64,000 nt of DNA, taken from Bacteroidota bacterium (GTDB lineage: Bacteria; Bacteroidota; Rhodothermia; Rhodothermales; UBA10348). The notes below the pieces were generated by a model. That model was not told the origin of the DNA and did not search any database. It was given only the letters and a program-made list of their open reading frames with translations. A program made the position numbers and the translations under genes. The stretch lies in NCBI GenBank assembly GCA_029262835.1, contig JAJCYQ010000043.1:97123-161122 (forward strand). Reading direction: 5' to 3'. Of the stretch, positions 57,991 to 63,422 are shown piece after piece; positions within the stretch are counted from its first letter, which is position 1; the number at the start of each line of letters is the position of its first letter.

Positions 57991-58938
57991 ATGAAAGCAT
58001 TCAAACTCTCTTTCCTCCCACTTCTTCTGATTGCCTTCGGGCTCATGGGATGTGACTCCGGCAGTTCACTTACGGGCGCTGCATCCGAAGGTGCCACCGA
58101 TGCGCCTGTTTCGCTGTCTCTGTCCGTCGTAGACGGCACTGCCCTCGCCGGTTCAGACGGGGCAACACCCGCATTCGGCAAGTCCGGCACGATAGATCTG
58201 ACGCGAGTACGCCTGCTTCTTCGCACCATACAGCTTCACTCGGACGACGACGATCGATACGCTGATTTTCGGACGGCGCCAACGGTTGTTGAACTGAATA
58301 TGGATGGTTTCGCGACAGAGGTAGAAGTCGCGGATATCCCACAGGGTACGTATGAGAAGGTGTCATTTCGAATCCACAAGCCCGAAGATGATGGTGCACT
58401 TCCTGAAGGCGCCGAAGACTTCCGCGAGGGAACGAGTGGCAATGAGCGCTTCTCGATGATCATCGAGGGTACATACGACGGGACTCCGTTTGTGTACCGC
58501 TCGAGCAAGTCCATGCAGCAGCGAGTTGATCTTGACCCTGACCTCGTCGTGGACGACGCGTTTGCCGGCCCGTTGAACGTGGCTCTCCAGGTAGACGTAA
58601 GCCGTTGGTTCACCGACCGCGACGGGAATACGTTGGATCCGAGGAATGCGTCGGAGCGCACAGCGAATGAGATTGATCGCTCCATCCGCGAATCGTTCCG
58701 GGCCTTCCCTGACCACGACAACGACCGTCGCCGCGACGAGGACCGTCGCCGCGATGACGACGACCGCCGCGACCGGGACGATGACGACCGCCGCGATGAT
58801 GACGACTCGGACGACGACGGCAGCGATGACTCGGACGACGACGGCAACGACGACTCGGACGACGACGGCAACGACGACTCGGACGACGACGGCAACGACG
58901 ACTCGGACGACGACAGCTCCGACGACGACGACAACTGA
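57991..58938 (+). CDS. DUF4382-like lipoprotein with Asp-rich repeat tail
   Basis: 315 aa. Lipobox FGLMGC (Cys about 21). Residues about 35-225 form a beta domain that looks like DUF4382 (VSLSLSVVDG, IDLTRVRLLLRTIQLHSDDD, TVVELNMDGF, IPQGTYEKVSFRIHKPED, GTPFVYRSSKSMQQRVDLD, NVALQVDVSRWF). The tail from about 240 is almost entirely Asp with Arg, then an eight-residue repeat (DSDDDGND). Such acidic tails often bind calcium or other cations. It lies 114 bp upstream of the sigma-receptor fusion gene, whose barrel has a similar acidic tract. Confidence 0.75.
   Translation: MKAFKLSFLPLLLIAFGLMGCDSGSSLTGAASEGATDAPVSLSLSVVDGTALAGSDGATPAFGKSGTIDLTRVRLLLRTIQLHSDDDDRYADFRTAPTVVELNMDGFATEVEVADIPQGTYEKVSFRIHKPEDDGALPEGAEDFREGTSGNERFSMIIEGTYDGTPFVYRSSKSMQQRVDLDPDLVVDDAFAGPLNVALQVDVSRWFTDRDGNTLDPRNASERTANEIDRSIRESFRAFPDHDNDRRRDEDRRRDDDDRRDRDDDDRRDDDDSDDDGSDDSDDDGNDDSDDDGNDDSDDDGNDDSDDDSSDDDDN
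58804..58914 (+). repeat. 24-bp tandem repeat encoding the acidic tail
   Basis: Four full 24-bp units (58804, 58828, 58852, 58876; GACTCGGACGACGACGGCAA core) and a partial fifth to 58914. Only a few base differences among units, so it is a likely site of length change between strains. Confidence 0.88.
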
Positions 58939-59012: not shown

Positions 59013-59042
59013 AGCGGCAGGGCGCCGAGGCGCTCTGCCGCT
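59013..59042 (+). promoter_or_regulatory. Leader hairpin before the sigma-receptor fusion gene
   Basis: AGCGGCAGGGCGC (59013-59025), loop CGAG, GCGCTCTGCCGCT (59030-59042): 13-bp stem with one mismatch, ending 10 bp before ATG 59053. It could mask the initiation region. If the upstream ATG 58978 were the start it would lie in coding sequence. Confidence 0.5.
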
Positions 59043-59052
59043 CCGCTCGTTG

Positions 59053-62000
59053 ATGACCCACTCCGCGACACATGCTCTTTCAGCCCGAATCCGGGATGGC
59101 GATCGCGAGGCCTTCCAGAAGTTCTTCCAAGAAGTATATCCGCAGGTGGTTCGTTTCGCGGAGAGTCGGATTGGAGGCAGGCAGCCGGCCGAGGACATGG
59201 TGCAGGACGCTTTCGTCCGCATCTGGGAAGATCGCCGGCGCATTGCACCCGAGAAGGCGCTGAAGGCGTACGTTTTCAAACTGGTCGCCAATGCCATCAT
59301 TGATTACTACAGGCACGAGACGGTGAAGCAGCGACACGCCGAACATATTCAGGTAGATGGCCACGCAGTGGCACCTGCGCACGATCCGACGCAGGAGGCG
59401 GAAATCCTGCGCGCGATAGACGAACTTCCCGAAAAAGAGAGCACCGTTTTCAGGCTGAATCGATTTTCGGGTCTCACTTACGCGGAGACTGCCAAGTACC
59501 TCGGGGTGTCTCCCAAGACTGTGGAAAAGTACATGTCACGCGCCCTCGCTCGGCTTGGTACGTCGCTTCGCGACTTCCTTGTGCTTGTCGCCGCGCTGAT
59601 GACGTTGTTGGCGGCCCGTTCGGCCGACGGGCAGAATCGGGGCTCGGCGCCGGTCGCAGCGGAGTTCACCGCATCTACCATGACAATCCGCGTTGAAGGA
59701 ATGCCACTGCGGACGGCGCTGAATCGCATTGCGGAAGCGGCGGGCGCTGGCGTGGTCTATGACGACCGCATGGTGGAAAGCCTGTTGGCGGGTGCGCATT
59801 GTACGGGTTGCCCACTACAGGACGTTCTCCGCGAACTGCTTGAGCCGCATGGGCTCACGTATGACATACTGGAAGGACCAGTGATTGTGATCATGCGCGG
59901 CAGTGATCGCCACGTGACGGGGCGAATCATAGATGCGGAGACTGGTGAATCGCTGCCCCTGGCGCAGGTCTGGAGCGGATCTACGGGCGATGTGGCCAAT
60001 GCTGACGGTGTTTTTACGCTCATGATTCCGCCCTCGAAGGCGGCCGATGTGACGGTGAGTTTTATGGGATACGAGCATCAGACGGTGCGGGTGGGATCCG
60101 AGCGTGGAGAGCGGCTTGGTACGATTGCCCTCGTCCCCCGCAGCGTCATGGTGGGAGAAGTCACGGTATTGGCTGAGCCCGTGATTCCAGTTTCCGGCGA
60201 TGGGAGTGGGGCCCGCGTCATGGGAGATGGGACCATGGGGCACATTCCGTCGGTCGGCGGGGACGACCCGCTGCTTGCCATGCAGATGCTTCCCGGTCTT
60301 GATAATACAGGGGAGCGGGCCGGCGAATTGTTCATTCGTGGGGCGACGCCGCGGACGAACCTCGTGACGTGGGATGGGATTCCCGTGTTCAGTGCGGACC
60401 ACTTTTTCGGGATGATATCGACGTTTTCACCGCAGGCCGTCGGCAAAGTCAGCACGTATCCGCGCGGCGCACCGGCCCACTTGGGAGGGCGTGCCGGAAC
60501 GGTCGTGGAGATGACGTCTCCAACGGGCCTCGGGAGCGCACAGGCGCTCGCGCATTCCTCCGTATTGGTCTCTGGCGGTAGCATCCGTATTCCACTCGGT
60601 GCCCGCGTGGGAGGTTGGATCTCCGCACGGCGTTCCACGCCGGCCATTGAACAGGAAACTGCATACAGCTCGTTCTTTGACAGCGCCATCGGAGAGGGAT
60701 TCGCGGCGAACCGGCCAGGGTTTACGTTCAACGATGTGAGCGCACGCCTGGACGTGCTGCCGACAGGTCGGCATCACGTTTCGTTGAGTGTGCACACGAG
60801 CAGCGATGGCCTGGACCGCAGTACGGACGACGTGTTTCGGCAACTCGCCATCGTCAATGTGCAGACGGAGGAAGAAGAGGATGAGAATGACAATCGTGGA
60901 CGCGGTCGGGATGACGACGACGGTGACGATGAAGACGACCGGGATGACGACGCGCGCGATGATGCGGACGACGCGCGCGATGATGCGGACGATGCGCGCG
61001 ATGATGCGCGTGATGATGCCTCCGACAGCGCTCGAAGCGACGACGAGCCGGATCTCATCGAGACGCGGGTGACCGAGCGCGAAAGGACGAACAATGACTG
61101 GAGCATGGAGGGCGCGGCCGTCAATTGGACCGCCCGCTGGGCACGCGGCGCACCCATGCACGTCCAACTCACACACTCGGAGTCAAAAAGCGCTTTTACA
61201 GCCGATTTGACGGAGTTCGAAAGCGATACACTCGCCTTTTCAGAGCTCCAGGATCGGCGCCACTCTATTGAGCAACAGGCTGTTCGCGTGCGCCAGCAGA
61301 TTCCATCCTCGTTGGGTACGACGTCGATCGGGGCATTCTACGAATCGGCCCGATCCACGTTTGCTGTCTCGACGATTGTGAACGAAGCGACAGGCCGTGA
61401 CTCTACGGCGTCCCAGGACATGGAATTGGCCGGATGGCATTTTGCGCAGAACCTGGAGCAGGGGCCAATCCGGATGGATGCGGGCCTCCGCCTGACGCGC
61501 CTCTCTACAAACAGTTCGTGGTACGCGGCCCCACGGGTGGCGGCCAACCTGGCCGTGTCGGATCGCGTCTCTGCGCAGATTTTCTGGGGACAGTACCACC
61601 AGTATATGCTGCGTTCGCTCGATTCGGATATTCTGGTCGAGCGTCGCGACAATTGGACGGTCCTGGGACCAGGGCAGGAGCCAGCCCGCTCGCGGCAGTT
61701 CGGCGCATCGATTGCAGCGAGCGGTCGTGCCTGGAGCCTGTCTACCGACATCTGGCGGCGAACAAGCCGCGGCGTACCCGTACTTCCTGAAGCCACTCCA
61801 CGAGCCGACGTCGCTCCGTTCAACGGGGACGAGACACGTGCAACCGGTGTGGACGTTGGCGGGCAGGTGACCCGATCCGGTTTCGTGGCACTCGTCAACT
61901 ATACCTATACGCGAAGCGAAGCCAACAGCTCTGCCTTCCCGGAGGTCGGCTGGTTCCGAGCGCTCTCCGAACGCCCACATGCGGTAAAAGGTATCGTGTC

Positions 62001-62367
62001 GGCGCCGCTCGGGCCAGTCCGGCTGGGCGTGTCGTATACCGCCGCGAGCGGCCGCCCCGTCGGCGTGCTGCTTGACGCCCGGCGCTTCGTAGCGGCAGAC
62101 GGCTCGCAACTTCTTGGAAGCGCGGCGGCTTCACTGGGCGGCGAACGCCTGGCTCCGTACCGTCGAATGGATGTTGAAATGGAGTGGACGAGCCGCATCG
62201 GCGGTCTGGATTTTGCGGCGGCGGTAACTGCCGTGAATGTCTTCAACCGCGACAACGTGCGCTATCAGCGTATCGTGACCGACGGCACTTCGGTGCTGCT
62301 TCGAGACGTGACCATGCTCGGTTTCACCCCGACCGCCTCGCTCCGGATAGGACTTTACAGGCCGTAA
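59053..62367 (+). CDS. ECF sigma factor fused to STN-containing TonB receptor
   Basis: 1104 aa from ATG 59053 (an upstream ATG at 58978 is possible). Residues 18-88: sigma-70 region 2 (AFQKFFQEVYPQVVRFAESR, AEDMVQDAFVRIWED). 115-168: region 4 (LPEKESTVFRL, LTYAETAKYLGVSPKTVEKYMSRAL). 174-188: hydrophobic FLVLVAALMTLLAA, then ADGQ, like a signal peptide. 207-283: STN domain. 287-365: carboxypeptidase-regulatory-like domain. 370-505: TonB box-like GEVTVLAE and plug (IRGATPRTNLVTWDGIPVF). Then the barrel to the C-terminus, with an Asp/Arg-rich tract at about 606-668. The frame is open throughout. FecI-type sigma factors and FecA-type receptors are normally separate. fecR follows after 2 bp. Confidence 0.9.
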   Translation: MTHSATHALSARIRDGDREAFQKFFQEVYPQVVRFAESRIGGRQPAEDMVQDAFVRIWEDRRRIAPEKALKAYVFKLVANAIIDYYRHETVKQRHAEHIQVDGHAVAPAHDPTQEAEILRAIDELPEKESTVFRLNRFSGLTYAETAKYLGVSPKTVEKYMSRALARLGTSLRDFLVLVAALMTLLAARSADGQNRGSAPVAAEFTASTMTIRVEGMPLRTALNRIAEAAGAGVVYDDRMVESLLAGAHCTGCPLQDVLRELLEPHGLTYDILEGPVIVIMRGSDRHVTGRIIDAETGESLPLAQVWSGSTGDVANADGVFTLMIPPSKAADVTVSFMGYEHQTVRVGSERGERLGTIALVPRSVMVGEVTVLAEPVIPVSGDGSGARVMGDGTMGHIPSVGGDDPLLAMQMLPGLDNTGERAGELFIRGATPRTNLVTWDGIPVFSADHFFGMISTFSPQAVGKVSTYPRGAPAHLGGRAGTVVEMTSPTGLGSAQALAHSSVLVSGGSIRIPLGARVGGWISARRSTPAIEQETAYSSFFDSAIGEGFAANRPGFTFNDVSARLDVLPTGRHHVSLSVHTSSDGLDRSTDDVFRQLAIVNVQTEEEEDENDNRGRGRDDDDGDDEDDRDDDARDDADDARDDADDARDDARDDASDSARSDDEPDLIETRVTERERTNNDWSMEGAAVNWTARWARGAPMHVQLTHSESKSAFTADLTEFESDTLAFSELQDRRHSIEQQAVRVRQQIPSSLGTTSIGAFYESARSTFAVSTIVNEATGRDSTASQDMELAGWHFAQNLEQGPIRMDAGLRLTRLSTNSSWYAAPRVAANLAVSDRVSAQIFWGQYHQYMLRSLDSDILVERRDNWTVLGPGQEPARSRQFGASIAASGRAWSLSTDIWRRTSRGVPVLPEATPRADVAPFNGDETRATGVDVGGQVTRSGFVALVNYTYTRSEANSSAFPEVGWFRALSERPHAVKGIVSAPLGPVRLGVSYTAASGRPVGVLLDARRFVAADGSQLLGSAAASLGGERLAPYRRMDVEMEWTSRIGGLDFAAAVTAVNVFNRDNVRYQRIVTDGTSVLLRDVTMLGFTPTASLRIGLYRP

Positions 62368-62369
62368 CC

Positions 62370-63422
62370 ATGAACGAATACCCTCACTCAGAGCACGAAC
62401 TGCTGGCTCGCCTGTTCGACGGCAGCCTGACCGAGGCCGATCGGCGTGCGCTTGCCGAGCGCATGCGGGGAGATGCGGACCTCGCCGCTACCGTCCAGAC
62501 CGTACAGCGGTTGGCGGAGATCATTCCTCCCGTAGATACCGATGCCGTACGCGCGGCTGTCGCCGATGTCGATACGCGCGCAGCCTGGAAGCGCGTCGAG
62601 GCGCGGCTTGAGCGCAAGGCGCCGGCGACTTCGCTGGCCGCTGGTCGGCCCGCATCCGCACCTTTCCAGGCCACCCGAGGGCCTGCCGCCACCATATACC
62701 AGTTCCGGTACATGGCAATCGCCGCTTCCGTGGTGCTCATAGCCGTCTTCGTCTCGCTGCTTCTGCGGCCAGAGCAGGTACCCACGTGGGAATCCATCCG
62801 CGTGCCCCGCGGAGAAATCCGCACCGTGGAGCTCGGGGACGGCTCGCGCGTCGTGCTCAATGCGGACAGCCATCTCGAGCATGCCGTTGCCGAGGATGCC
62901 CCGACCCGCACGGTTCAGCTTCGCGGCGAAGCGCGTTTCGAGGTGGCTTCCGATGGGCGCGCGTTCGTTGTAGAAACGACCGAAGCGCGCGTCCGCGTCC
63001 TGGGCACCACGTTTTCGGTCCGCGCGCGGGGTGACGTGACGTCTGTCGCCGTGCAGAAGGGGCGCGTCGCGGTGGAAACTGGAACTGATGCCACGGAGCT
63101 GGCCCCGGATGAGGCCGTTGAGGTGGTCGCGGGAGGGGCCGTGCGCGCCCTGGCACAAGACGTGGCGCGCGCTGCCGACGACTGGACGCGCGGCGTGCTC
63201 ACCTTTCAGCGCGTAGCTCTCGCAGACGCCCTGGCCGATGTCGAGCGCACGTTCGACGTCGAAGTCGCCCTGTCTGGATCGTGGACAGGCGACGAGACCG
63301 TATCTGGTTCGTTCCCGGGCCAGGAAGTGGACGAGGTGCTCGGCAGCCTGTGCAGTATTTATGCATGTGACGTGCGGGAGCGCTCGGCCGGCGTCGTCCG
63401 CGGATTCGACCTCGTGCGCTGA
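62370..63422 (+). CDS. FecR-family anti-sigma factor/signal transducer
   Basis: 350 aa. Cytoplasmic N-terminal anti-sigma helices (HELLARLFDGSLTEADRRALAERM), one membrane helix (YMAIAASVVLIAVFVSLLL, about 110-130), the periplasmic FecR domain (IRVPRGEIRTVELGDGSRVVLNADSHLE, TVQLRGEARFEVASDGRAFVVET, VLGTTFSVRA) and a C-terminal STN-like/DUF4974 domain (WTRGVLTFQRVALADALADVERTFDVEVALSG). It starts 2 bp after the fusion gene. It should bind the sigma part in the cytoplasm and the receptor STN domain in the periplasm. Order sigma-receptor-anti-sigma differs from the usual sigma-fecR-receptor. Confidence 0.93.
   Translation: MNEYPHSEHELLARLFDGSLTEADRRALAERMRGDADLAATVQTVQRLAEIIPPVDTDAVRAAVADVDTRAAWKRVEARLERKAPATSLAAGRPASAPFQATRGPAATIYQFRYMAIAASVVLIAVFVSLLLRPEQVPTWESIRVPRGEIRTVELGDGSRVVLNADSHLEHAVAEDAPTRTVQLRGEARFEVASDGRAFVVETTEARVRVLGTTFSVRARGDVTSVAVQKGRVAVETGTDATELAPDEAVEVVAGGAVRALAQDVARAADDWTRGVLTFQRVALADALADVERTFDVEVALSGSWTGDETVSGSFPGQEVDEVLGSLCSIYACDVRERSAGVVRGFDLVR

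What the first reader, a model, noticed from the sequence alone, without database searches (positions are those of the whole stretch)
59053..62367. One protein combines an ECF sigma factor with a complete STN TonB receptor
The frame runs 1104 codons without a stop and contains sigma regions 2 and 4 (residues about 18-168) and then STN, plug and barrel domains. In FecI/FecR/FecA signalling these are separate polypeptides in different compartments. Co-translation would fix sigma and receptor at one-to-one and place the sigma factor in the cytoplasm and the STN domain in the periplasm of the same chain until it is cut. I know of no described sigma-TonB-receptor fusion, but I could not search.
Basis: partly seen in the sequence, partly recalled or inferred. 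Interest (0 to 1): 0.93.

Follow-up and report, generated by a model that had tools for sequence, protein, structure and literature searches.

The report
Sigma factor fused to TonB receptor
In a genus of Rhodothermales bacteria, a gene-switch protein (a sigma factor) and the outer-membrane receptor that would tell it when to act are encoded as one protein, which is likely cut in two during export, so that making the receptor would also deliver its own gene switch to the inner membrane.

Summary
Window 59053-62367 (+) is one open frame of 1104 codons: ECF sigma regions 2 and 4, one hydrophobic segment, an STN-type signalling domain, a carboxypeptidase-like domain, plug and barrel. It is not an assembly slip: all 4 genomes held of the genus carry it, two further fused proteins exist (six in all; the others are 43-76% identical to this one), and sigma region 4 is under purifying selection. 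None of the other 240 genomes of the class matched at E 1e-20. A FecR anti-sigma gene starts 2 bp downstream. Three unfused relatives keep the order sigma, receptor, FecR, the first two touching or overlapping as read from the first start codon; there sigma factor and receptor each have a hydrophobic segment. In the fusions one segment stands for both and ends in a signal-peptidase-like site in 6 of 6. Best reading: a cell-surface-signalling polyprotein, split by signal peptidase into a membrane-tethered sigma factor and an exported receptor. Cut, stoichiometry and sigma release are predicted, not shown. Main rival: an internal start at codon 161. Eight literature searches found no sigma-receptor fusion; IutY (sigma plus anti-sigma) is the nearest precedent.

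The parts
57991..58938 (+). Lipoprotein gene (315 aa, lipobox-like LMGC, Asp-rich tail), first gene of the likely unit
   Evidence: Present 114-120 bp upstream of the fusion start in 4 of 4 genomes of the genus; 36-47 Asp/Glu in the last 60 residues; weak sub-cut-off Pfam MbnP match, 21.7 against 27 bits
59013..59042 (+). RNA hairpin, 13-bp stem, ending 10 nt before the start codon
   Evidence: Folds with z -3.3; stem kept in window, G002 and G003 with three two-sided changes, 31 of 500 shuffles as good; G001 has a different, longer hairpin
59053..62367 (+). Sigma-receptor fusion gene, 1104 codons and stop
   Evidence: six fused homologues counting this one
59125..59319 (+). Sigma region 2 (residues 25-89)
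   Evidence: Pfam 50.4 bits; model pLDDT mostly about 90
59401..59556 (+). Sigma region 4 (residues 117-168)
   Evidence: Pfam 62.8 bits; dN 0.03-0.10 among window, G002 and G003
59533..59535 (+). ATG codon 161, possible internal start of the receptor (rival reading)
   Evidence: weak local structure but no support against synonymous recoding except in G002; ATG at this place in 16 of 17 unfused sigma genes
59563..59622 (+). Single hydrophobic segment (residues 171-190), predicted sigma tail and signal peptide in one
   Evidence: hydropathy, helix 173-192 in the model
59623..59634 (+). Predicted signal peptidase site A-D-G|Q, cut after residue 193 (codon end 59631)
   Evidence: A-x-(A/G)-Q at this place in 6 of 6 fusions; 93 of 5126 overlapping 40-residue stretches elsewhere in the same proteins
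59671..59904 (+). STN signalling domain (residues 207-284)
   Evidence: structure match to FoxA and FpvA; sub-cut-off Pfam
59914..60168 (+). CarboxypepD_reg-like domain (residues 288-372)
   Evidence: Pfam 45.2 bits
60277..60492 (+). TonB plug (residues 409-480)
   Evidence: Pfam 27.6 bits
60541..62355 (+). Outer-membrane barrel (about residues 497-1101), with an acidic stretch at 605-670 (60865-61062)
   Evidence: strands in the model, Foldseek to transducers, homology to receptors with a Pfam barrel match; acidic stretch
62370..63422 (+). FecR anti-sigma gene (350 aa), 2 bp after the fusion's stop
   Evidence: Pfam FecR 71.2 bits and FecR_C 29.8 bits; hydrophobic segment from residue 120; FecR gene at the same place in 4 of 4 genomes of the genus

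Best explanation
The gene encodes one polypeptide in which an ECF sigma factor is joined through a single hydrophobic segment to a TonB-dependent signalling receptor, and that segment would act both as the sigma factor's membrane tail and as the receptor's signal peptide, so that signal peptidase likely cuts the chain into an inner-membrane-tethered sigma factor and an exported receptor. SHOWN from sequence: one frame; sigma regions 2 and 4; one strong hydrophobic segment between region 4 and the signalling domain; an A-x-(A/G)|Q site after it; carboxypeptidase-like domain and plug; a FecR gene directly downstream; recurrence in the genus; abutting unfused genes in relatives. PREDICTED by models: signalling domain and barrel folds. 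INFERRED from established cell-surface signalling (FecI/FecR/FecA, IutY): the sigma half stays in the cytoplasm with the segment N-in; the receptor half is exported by Sec and built into the outer membrane; FecR, a single-pass anti-sigma factor, holds the tethered sigma factor and reads the receptor's STN domain in the periplasm; on signal, proteolysis of FecR would free the sigma factor to transcribe its targets, perhaps its own unit. Whether the remnant signal peptide is clipped off the sigma factor by a site-2 protease is open.
For: Fusion in 4 of 4 genomes of the genus and two more proteins. Region 4 conserved while silent sites change: window against G003 dN 0.097, dS 1.94. One hydrophobic segment with A-x-(A/G)-Q behind it in 6 of 6 fusions, the motif being in 93 of 5126 overlapping 40-residue stretches elsewhere; the site lies where the model's helix ends and a disordered stretch begins. 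In 3 of 3 unfused relatives the sigma factor has a hydrophobic tail and the receptor a segment of its own, so one was lost at fusion. FecR kept next to the fusion in 4 of 4. Genome encodes a signal peptidase I, two M50 proteases and three Prc-type proteases over cut-off. Precedents: IutY is a sigma factor tied through one membrane segment to a periplasmic domain and freed by Prc and RseP (PMC5411451, passages); RseP removes remnant signal peptides after leader peptidase has cut (PMC8144685, passages).
Against: No processing datum exists; no signal-peptide predictor was available, only hydropathy and a motif. A 19-kDa folded head before a signal peptide is unusual for an outer-membrane protein. 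One sigma factor per receptor would be far more than CSS normally needs (recalled), unless FecR, the hairpin or turnover limits it. The tail segment is less conserved than region 4 (dN/dS 0.13-0.59 where computable). The G003 protein lacks about 15 residues at the start of sigma region 2, so the sigma part may be weakened there. TIGR02985 is missed by 0.6 bits.
Confidence: 0.6

Rival explanations
1. Two products by internal initiation: ribosomes also start at ATG codon 161 and make a receptor with an ordinary signal peptide (MSRALARLGTSLRD plus the hydrophobic segment), so receptor outnumbers sigma; the full-length chain is a minor product.
For: The ATG is in all 4 genomes with DNA held and in all six proteins. 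Structure around it is weak: only 0.13, 0.03, 0.01 and 0.09 of codons of the same frame are weaker, against a median of 0.43 in 17 unfused sigma genes, 3 of which reach 0.13 or less. A strong hairpin before the first start might hold down full-length synthesis. It would solve the stoichiometry problem.
Against: ATG stands at this place in 16 of 17 unfused sigma genes, so it is a sigma-family residue. With amino acids fixed and codons redrawn the share at least as open is 0.28, 0.69, 0.014 and 0.23: only G002 stands out, and 4 of 17 unfused genes are below 0.06. Silent change around it is not reduced (0.58 at residues 151-175 against a mean of 0.53 in three genomes). No shared ribosome-binding motif: GGAG-like only in G001.
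Confidence: 0.22
2. The sigma half is a passenger: it no longer acts in transcription and serves only as an N-terminal extension of the receptor precursor.
For: About 15 residues at the start of region 2 are missing in P0005; a sigma factor made with every receptor seems wasteful.
Against: Region 4 is among the best-kept parts (dN 0.03-0.10 with silent sites near saturation), region 2 and 4 score well over Pfam cut-offs in the three fusions tested, and FecR stays beside it in 4 of 4.
Confidence: 0.08
3. Artefact: a missed stop or indel in the assembly joins two ordinary genes.
For: Assemblies are draft; at least two are metagenome-assembled (record titles); in relatives the genes abut, so one indel would join them.
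Against: Four assemblies and two further proteins show the same join with continuous homology across it, and the fusions lack the receptor's own hydrophobic segment, which an indel would have left in place.
Confidence: 0.02

Closest known systems
IutY of Pseudomonas putida (sigma/anti-sigma hybrid, ECF243)
   Same: A CSS sigma factor joined through one membrane segment to a periplasmic CSS partner in one chain; active after proteolysis by Prc and RseP (PMC5411451, PMC8999054, PMC9249621; passages)
   Different: Its partner is the anti-sigma domain, and the receptor IutA is separate; here the partner is the outer-membrane receptor and the anti-sigma factor is separate
FecI/FecR/FecA and FoxI/FoxR/FoxA type cell-surface signalling
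   Same: Same three components: ECF sigma factor, FecR anti-sigma factor, STN-bearing TonB-dependent transducer
   Different: There sigma factor and receptor are separate proteins; here they are one frame
Unfused sigma-receptor-FecR loci of G008, G057 and G055
   Same: Same gene order and homologous parts; sigma factors with hydrophobic tails
   Different: Two genes that touch or overlap, each product with its own hydrophobic segment
ECF groups with fused membrane anti-sigma extensions (ECF48, ECF52, ECF53, ECF36)
   Same: Sigma factor and membrane segment(s) in one chain (PMC8999054, passages)
   Different: Extensions act as anti-sigma factors; none is described there as a TonB-dependent receptor ('TonB' occurs 0 times in that paper)
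Proteins P0011-P0016: sigma factor plus CarboxypepD_reg-like extension
   Same: Long proteins beginning with an ECF sigma factor
   Different: No plug domain listed and weak similarity (E 2e-6 to 4e-4) confined to the sigma part for most

Membership tests
ECF sigma factor | regions 2 and 4 without region 3 | tested here: met
   Pfam r2 and r4_2 over cut-off; fold matches to SigW, CnrH, sigmaE
ECF sigma factor | NCBIfam subfamily TIGR02985 (Bacteroidota sigma factors) cut-off | tested here: not met
   125.8 bits against 126.4
ECF sigma factor | binds RNA polymerase and directs transcription | not testable with these tools
   no experiment
TonB-dependent transducer | N-terminal signalling (STN) domain | tested here: met
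TonB-dependent transducer | plug and 22-strand barrel | tested here: inconclusive
   plug over Pfam cut-off; barrel by low-confidence model and Foldseek and by homology; no Pfam barrel match in this protein; strands not counted
TonB-dependent transducer | TonB box | not tested
   not looked for
TonB-dependent transducer | signal peptide at the N-terminus of the protein | tested here: not met
   the only signal-peptide-like segment is internal, residues 171-193
Cell-surface signalling (FecI/FecR/FecA) system | FecR-type anti-sigma gene beside sigma and receptor | tested here: met
   FecR and FecR_C over cut-off; 4 of 4 genomes of the genus
Cell-surface signalling (FecI/FecR/FecA) system | three separate proteins | tested here: not met
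   sigma factor and receptor share one frame
IutY-type sigma/anti-sigma hybrid (ECF243) | anti-sigma domain fused C-terminal to the sigma factor | tested here: not met
   C-terminal part is receptor; FecR is a separate gene

The most novel reading that the evidence does not exclude
A secretion-coupled transcription factor: the sigma factor is carried as the cytoplasmic head of its receptor's precursor, signal peptidase leaves it hanging on the remnant signal peptide, and a site-2 protease that clears such remnants sets it free, so that each receptor exported yields one sigma factor and the cell counts receptor export in units of sigma factor, with FecR adding the ligand signal.
Probability: 0.25. 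Interest if true: 0.92.

Novelty: new variant of a known kind. Interest (0 to 1): 0.78.

Why it matters
A cytoplasmic transcription factor and an outer-membrane receptor in one chain would span every compartment of a Gram-negative cell and must be resolved by a cut or by a second start. It offers a natural test of whether the C-terminal hydrophobic tail that 14 of 17 unfused Bacteroidota sigma factors sampled here also have (the sample is biased towards tails because the search profile contains the tail) is a membrane anchor. It suggests a plain evolutionary route: abutting sigma and receptor genes, then one shared segment serving as tail and signal peptide. If signal-peptide processing frees the sigma factor, receptor export itself would be a transcription signal.

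Tried and rejected
Assembly error: rejected by recurrence and by loss of the second hydrophobic segment. Wider occurrence: the junction profile matched only the 4 genomes of the genus among 244 of the class at E 1e-20. Among 394 genomes of the phylum at E 1e-13 (8 candidates scored per genome), 37 genomes matched, 3 of them of the genus; the 44 matches listed for the other 34 lie in sigma frames of 145-234 aa. For TIGR02985 in 238 class genomes the list is cut and does not reach the fusions; open frames of the rows listed are 170-367 aa. These searches would miss fusions with distant sigma factors. The genome-contig scan gave only G002's record; no plasmid match. P0006 and P0011-P0016 are sigma factors with other extensions (HEAT repeats; CarboxypepD_reg-like domains), not receptors. 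Selection for an open internal start: suggestive, not upheld against synonymous recoding. Rfam for the hairpin: one chance-level match, 17 against 82 bits. Promoter and terminator scans over the unit were within the range of shuffles and did not list the hairpin. The 8-row full-length model is used only for fold class.

Own slips, mended: FecR first given from 62409 instead of 62370 (redone); minus-strand loci misread (redone); G003 lipoprotein misframed (redone); one search stopped on a script error (redone); one search stopped because one stretch contained a stop (my end coordinate ran past the G002 FecR gene; redone with a shorter stretch).

Full report
THE THING. Window 59053-62367 (+) is a single frame of 1104 codons. 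Pfam places sigma region 2 at residues 25-89, region 4 at 117-168, a CarboxypepD_reg-like domain at 288-372 and a TonB plug at 409-480, all over their cut-offs; NCBIfam's best match is the Bacteroidota sigma subfamily TIGR02985, 0.6 bits under its cut-off. Pfam STN is found only in the cut-out piece and below its cut-off. A model of residues 1-290 built on 19 sequences (mean pLDDT 79.6; pTM 0.38, so the placement of domains is not predicted) shows both sigma domains, a helix at 173-192, low confidence at 195-206 and an alpha-beta domain whose residues 207-284 align with the signalling domains of FoxA and FpvA. The whole-length model is poor (pLDDT 57.4), but FpvA, BauA, FoxA and FecA are among its ten best solved matches. 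Pfam's barrel model does not match the fusion but does match the unfused relatives of G057 and G055.

IT IS REAL. The same fusion stands in all 4 genomes of the genus among 27 genomes of the family, and database searches gave two more, P0004 and P0017: six distinct fused proteins, the other five 76, 75, 73, 48 and 43% identical to the window's. The record of P0005, the protein of G003, is titled 'MAG: RNA polymerase sigma-70 factor [Rhodothermales bacterium]', so it lies in public data under the name of its first half. The four genes for which DNA is held have no stop across the join. Region 4 of the sigma part is strongly conserved in protein while silent sites are saturated or nearly so: window against G003 dN 0.097, dS 1.94; window against G002 dN 0.027 with 75% of silent sites changed. 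The tail segment itself is less constrained (dN/dS 0.13-0.59 where computable). One caveat: P0005 lacks about 15 residues at its N-terminus.

WHERE IT CAME FROM. With G008's receptor as query, 7 of 244 class genomes match at E 1e-45: the four of the genus, G008 itself (same family), and G057 and G055 (another family of the order). In these three the sigma gene, the receptor gene and a FecR gene follow one another, each identified by Pfam except that the G008 receptor's plug is below cut-off, 19.9 against 23.9 bits: G008 with a 7-nt overlap of sigma and receptor, G057 with 1 nt between them, G055 with a 13-nt overlap. These distances use the first possible start codon; the true receptor starts may lie further in. 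The order differs from two other loci of the window's own genome, where FecR lies between sigma factor and receptor (L024 and L025). In the three unfused pairs the sigma factor ends in a hydrophobic tail and the receptor begins with a hydrophobic segment of its own; in the six fusions there is one strong hydrophobic segment between region 4 and STN, followed by A-x-(A/G)|Q. Of 17 unfused Bacteroidota sigma factors fetched with the junction profile, G008's among them, 14 have such a tail and 3 do not; because the profile contains the tail this share is biased upward. The simplest history is that abutting genes fused in an ancestor of the genus and the sigma tail took over as signal peptide. I infer this from gene order and hydropathy; no tree was made.

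HOW IT LIKELY WORKS. The sigma head would fold in the cytoplasm, the segment would enter the Sec channel N-in, the receptor would go out and signal peptidase would cut after residue 193. That would leave a sigma factor held at the inner membrane by a remnant signal peptide, next to FecR, whose gene starts 2 bp after the fusion's stop in the window and in G002, 5 bp after it in G001, and overlaps it by 4 nt in G003. FecR would hold the sigma factor and read the STN domain, as in FecA/FecR/FecI (review PMC9249621, passages) and FoxA/FoxR (PMC11637429, passages). E. coli FecI is described as associated with the inner membrane (PMC12037070, passages). IutY shows that a sigma factor tied through one membrane segment to a periplasmic partner works and is freed by Prc and RseP (PMC5411451, passages; PMC8999054, passages). 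RseP also removes remnant signal peptides once leader peptidase has cut (PMC8144685, passages), so the predicted sigma remnant is of a kind that site-2 proteases accept. The genome encodes a signal peptidase I, two M50 proteases and three Prc-type proteases over cut-off. None of this shows the steps in this organism.

THE MAIN RIVAL. ATG codon 161 could start a receptor with an ordinary signal peptide. Local RNA structure there is weak in all four fusions with DNA and less so in 17 unfused sigma genes (median share 0.43), which looked promising; but with amino acids held fixed and codons redrawn only G002 stands out, the ATG is common to the sigma family (16 of 17), and silent sites around it change as often as elsewhere. 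I keep it as a rival. A strong hairpin ends 10 nt before the first start codon of the window; its 13-bp stem is kept in the window, G002 and G003 with three two-sided changes (only three sequences; 31 of 500 shuffles do as well; no slid version comes near), and G001 has a different, longer hairpin whose predicted stem reaches the start codon. It may regulate the fusion's translation, and would favour the rival if it holds down the first start.

WHAT IT IS NOT. Not a IutY-type hybrid: the chain has no anti-sigma domain. Not found elsewhere: none of the other 240 class genomes matched the junction at E 1e-20. Other long proteins that begin with a sigma factor (P0006, P0011-P0016) carry HEAT-repeat or CarboxypepD_reg-like extensions and no listed plug.

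LITERATURE. Eight searches of the held PMC library turned up no description of a sigma factor fused to a TonB-dependent receptor; I judged by listings and by passages of six papers (PMC12037070, PMC9249621, PMC8999054, PMC5411451, PMC11637429, PMC8144685), and read none whole. The library lacks most subscription papers and all preprints.

VERDICT. A real, conserved fusion, found only in one genus (and in two proteins of unknown host), of two components of cell-surface signalling that are otherwise separate. New variant of a known kind; mechanism predicted.

Noticed in passing
window 59013-59042; L021, L022, L020: Strong RNA hairpin directly before the fusion's start codon: 13-bp stem with three two-sided changes among window, G002 and G003; a different, longer hairpin at the same place in G001. 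No Rfam family over cut-off. Possibly a translation or decay control.
   Followed up: partly
window 57991-58938: Lipoprotein gene with an Asp-rich tail, upstream of the fusion in 4 of 4 genomes of the genus; weak match to MbnP below cut-off. Likely part of the same unit; ligand unknown.
   Followed up: partly
window 60865-61062: Acidic repeat-like stretch in the receptor part: 23-26 Asp/Glu of 40 in five fusions, 11 of 40 in P0017; 27 of 40 in G008 and 19 of 40 in G057, 11 of 40 in G055. Together with the lipoprotein's tail this hints at a cation ligand; untested.
   Followed up: partly
L022 (G003) 7272 onward: The G003 fusion lacks about 15 codons at the start of sigma region 2, with a stop directly before its ATG; its sigma half may be weakened.
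   Followed up: no
L033, L045, L046: The 3 of 17 unfused sigma factors without a C-terminal hydrophobic tail begin instead with a hydrophobic N-terminus (first residues shown); perhaps another way to the membrane.
   Followed up: no
window, fusion residues 51-100: Silent codon change at invariant residues is lower here (0.33 and 0.28, 34 columns) than the gene's mean of 0.53 among window, G002 and G003; cause unknown, small sample.
   Followed up: no
P0006, P0011-P0016 (database proteins): Other long proteins that start with an ECF sigma factor and continue into HEAT-repeat or CarboxypepD_reg-like domains.
   Followed up: no
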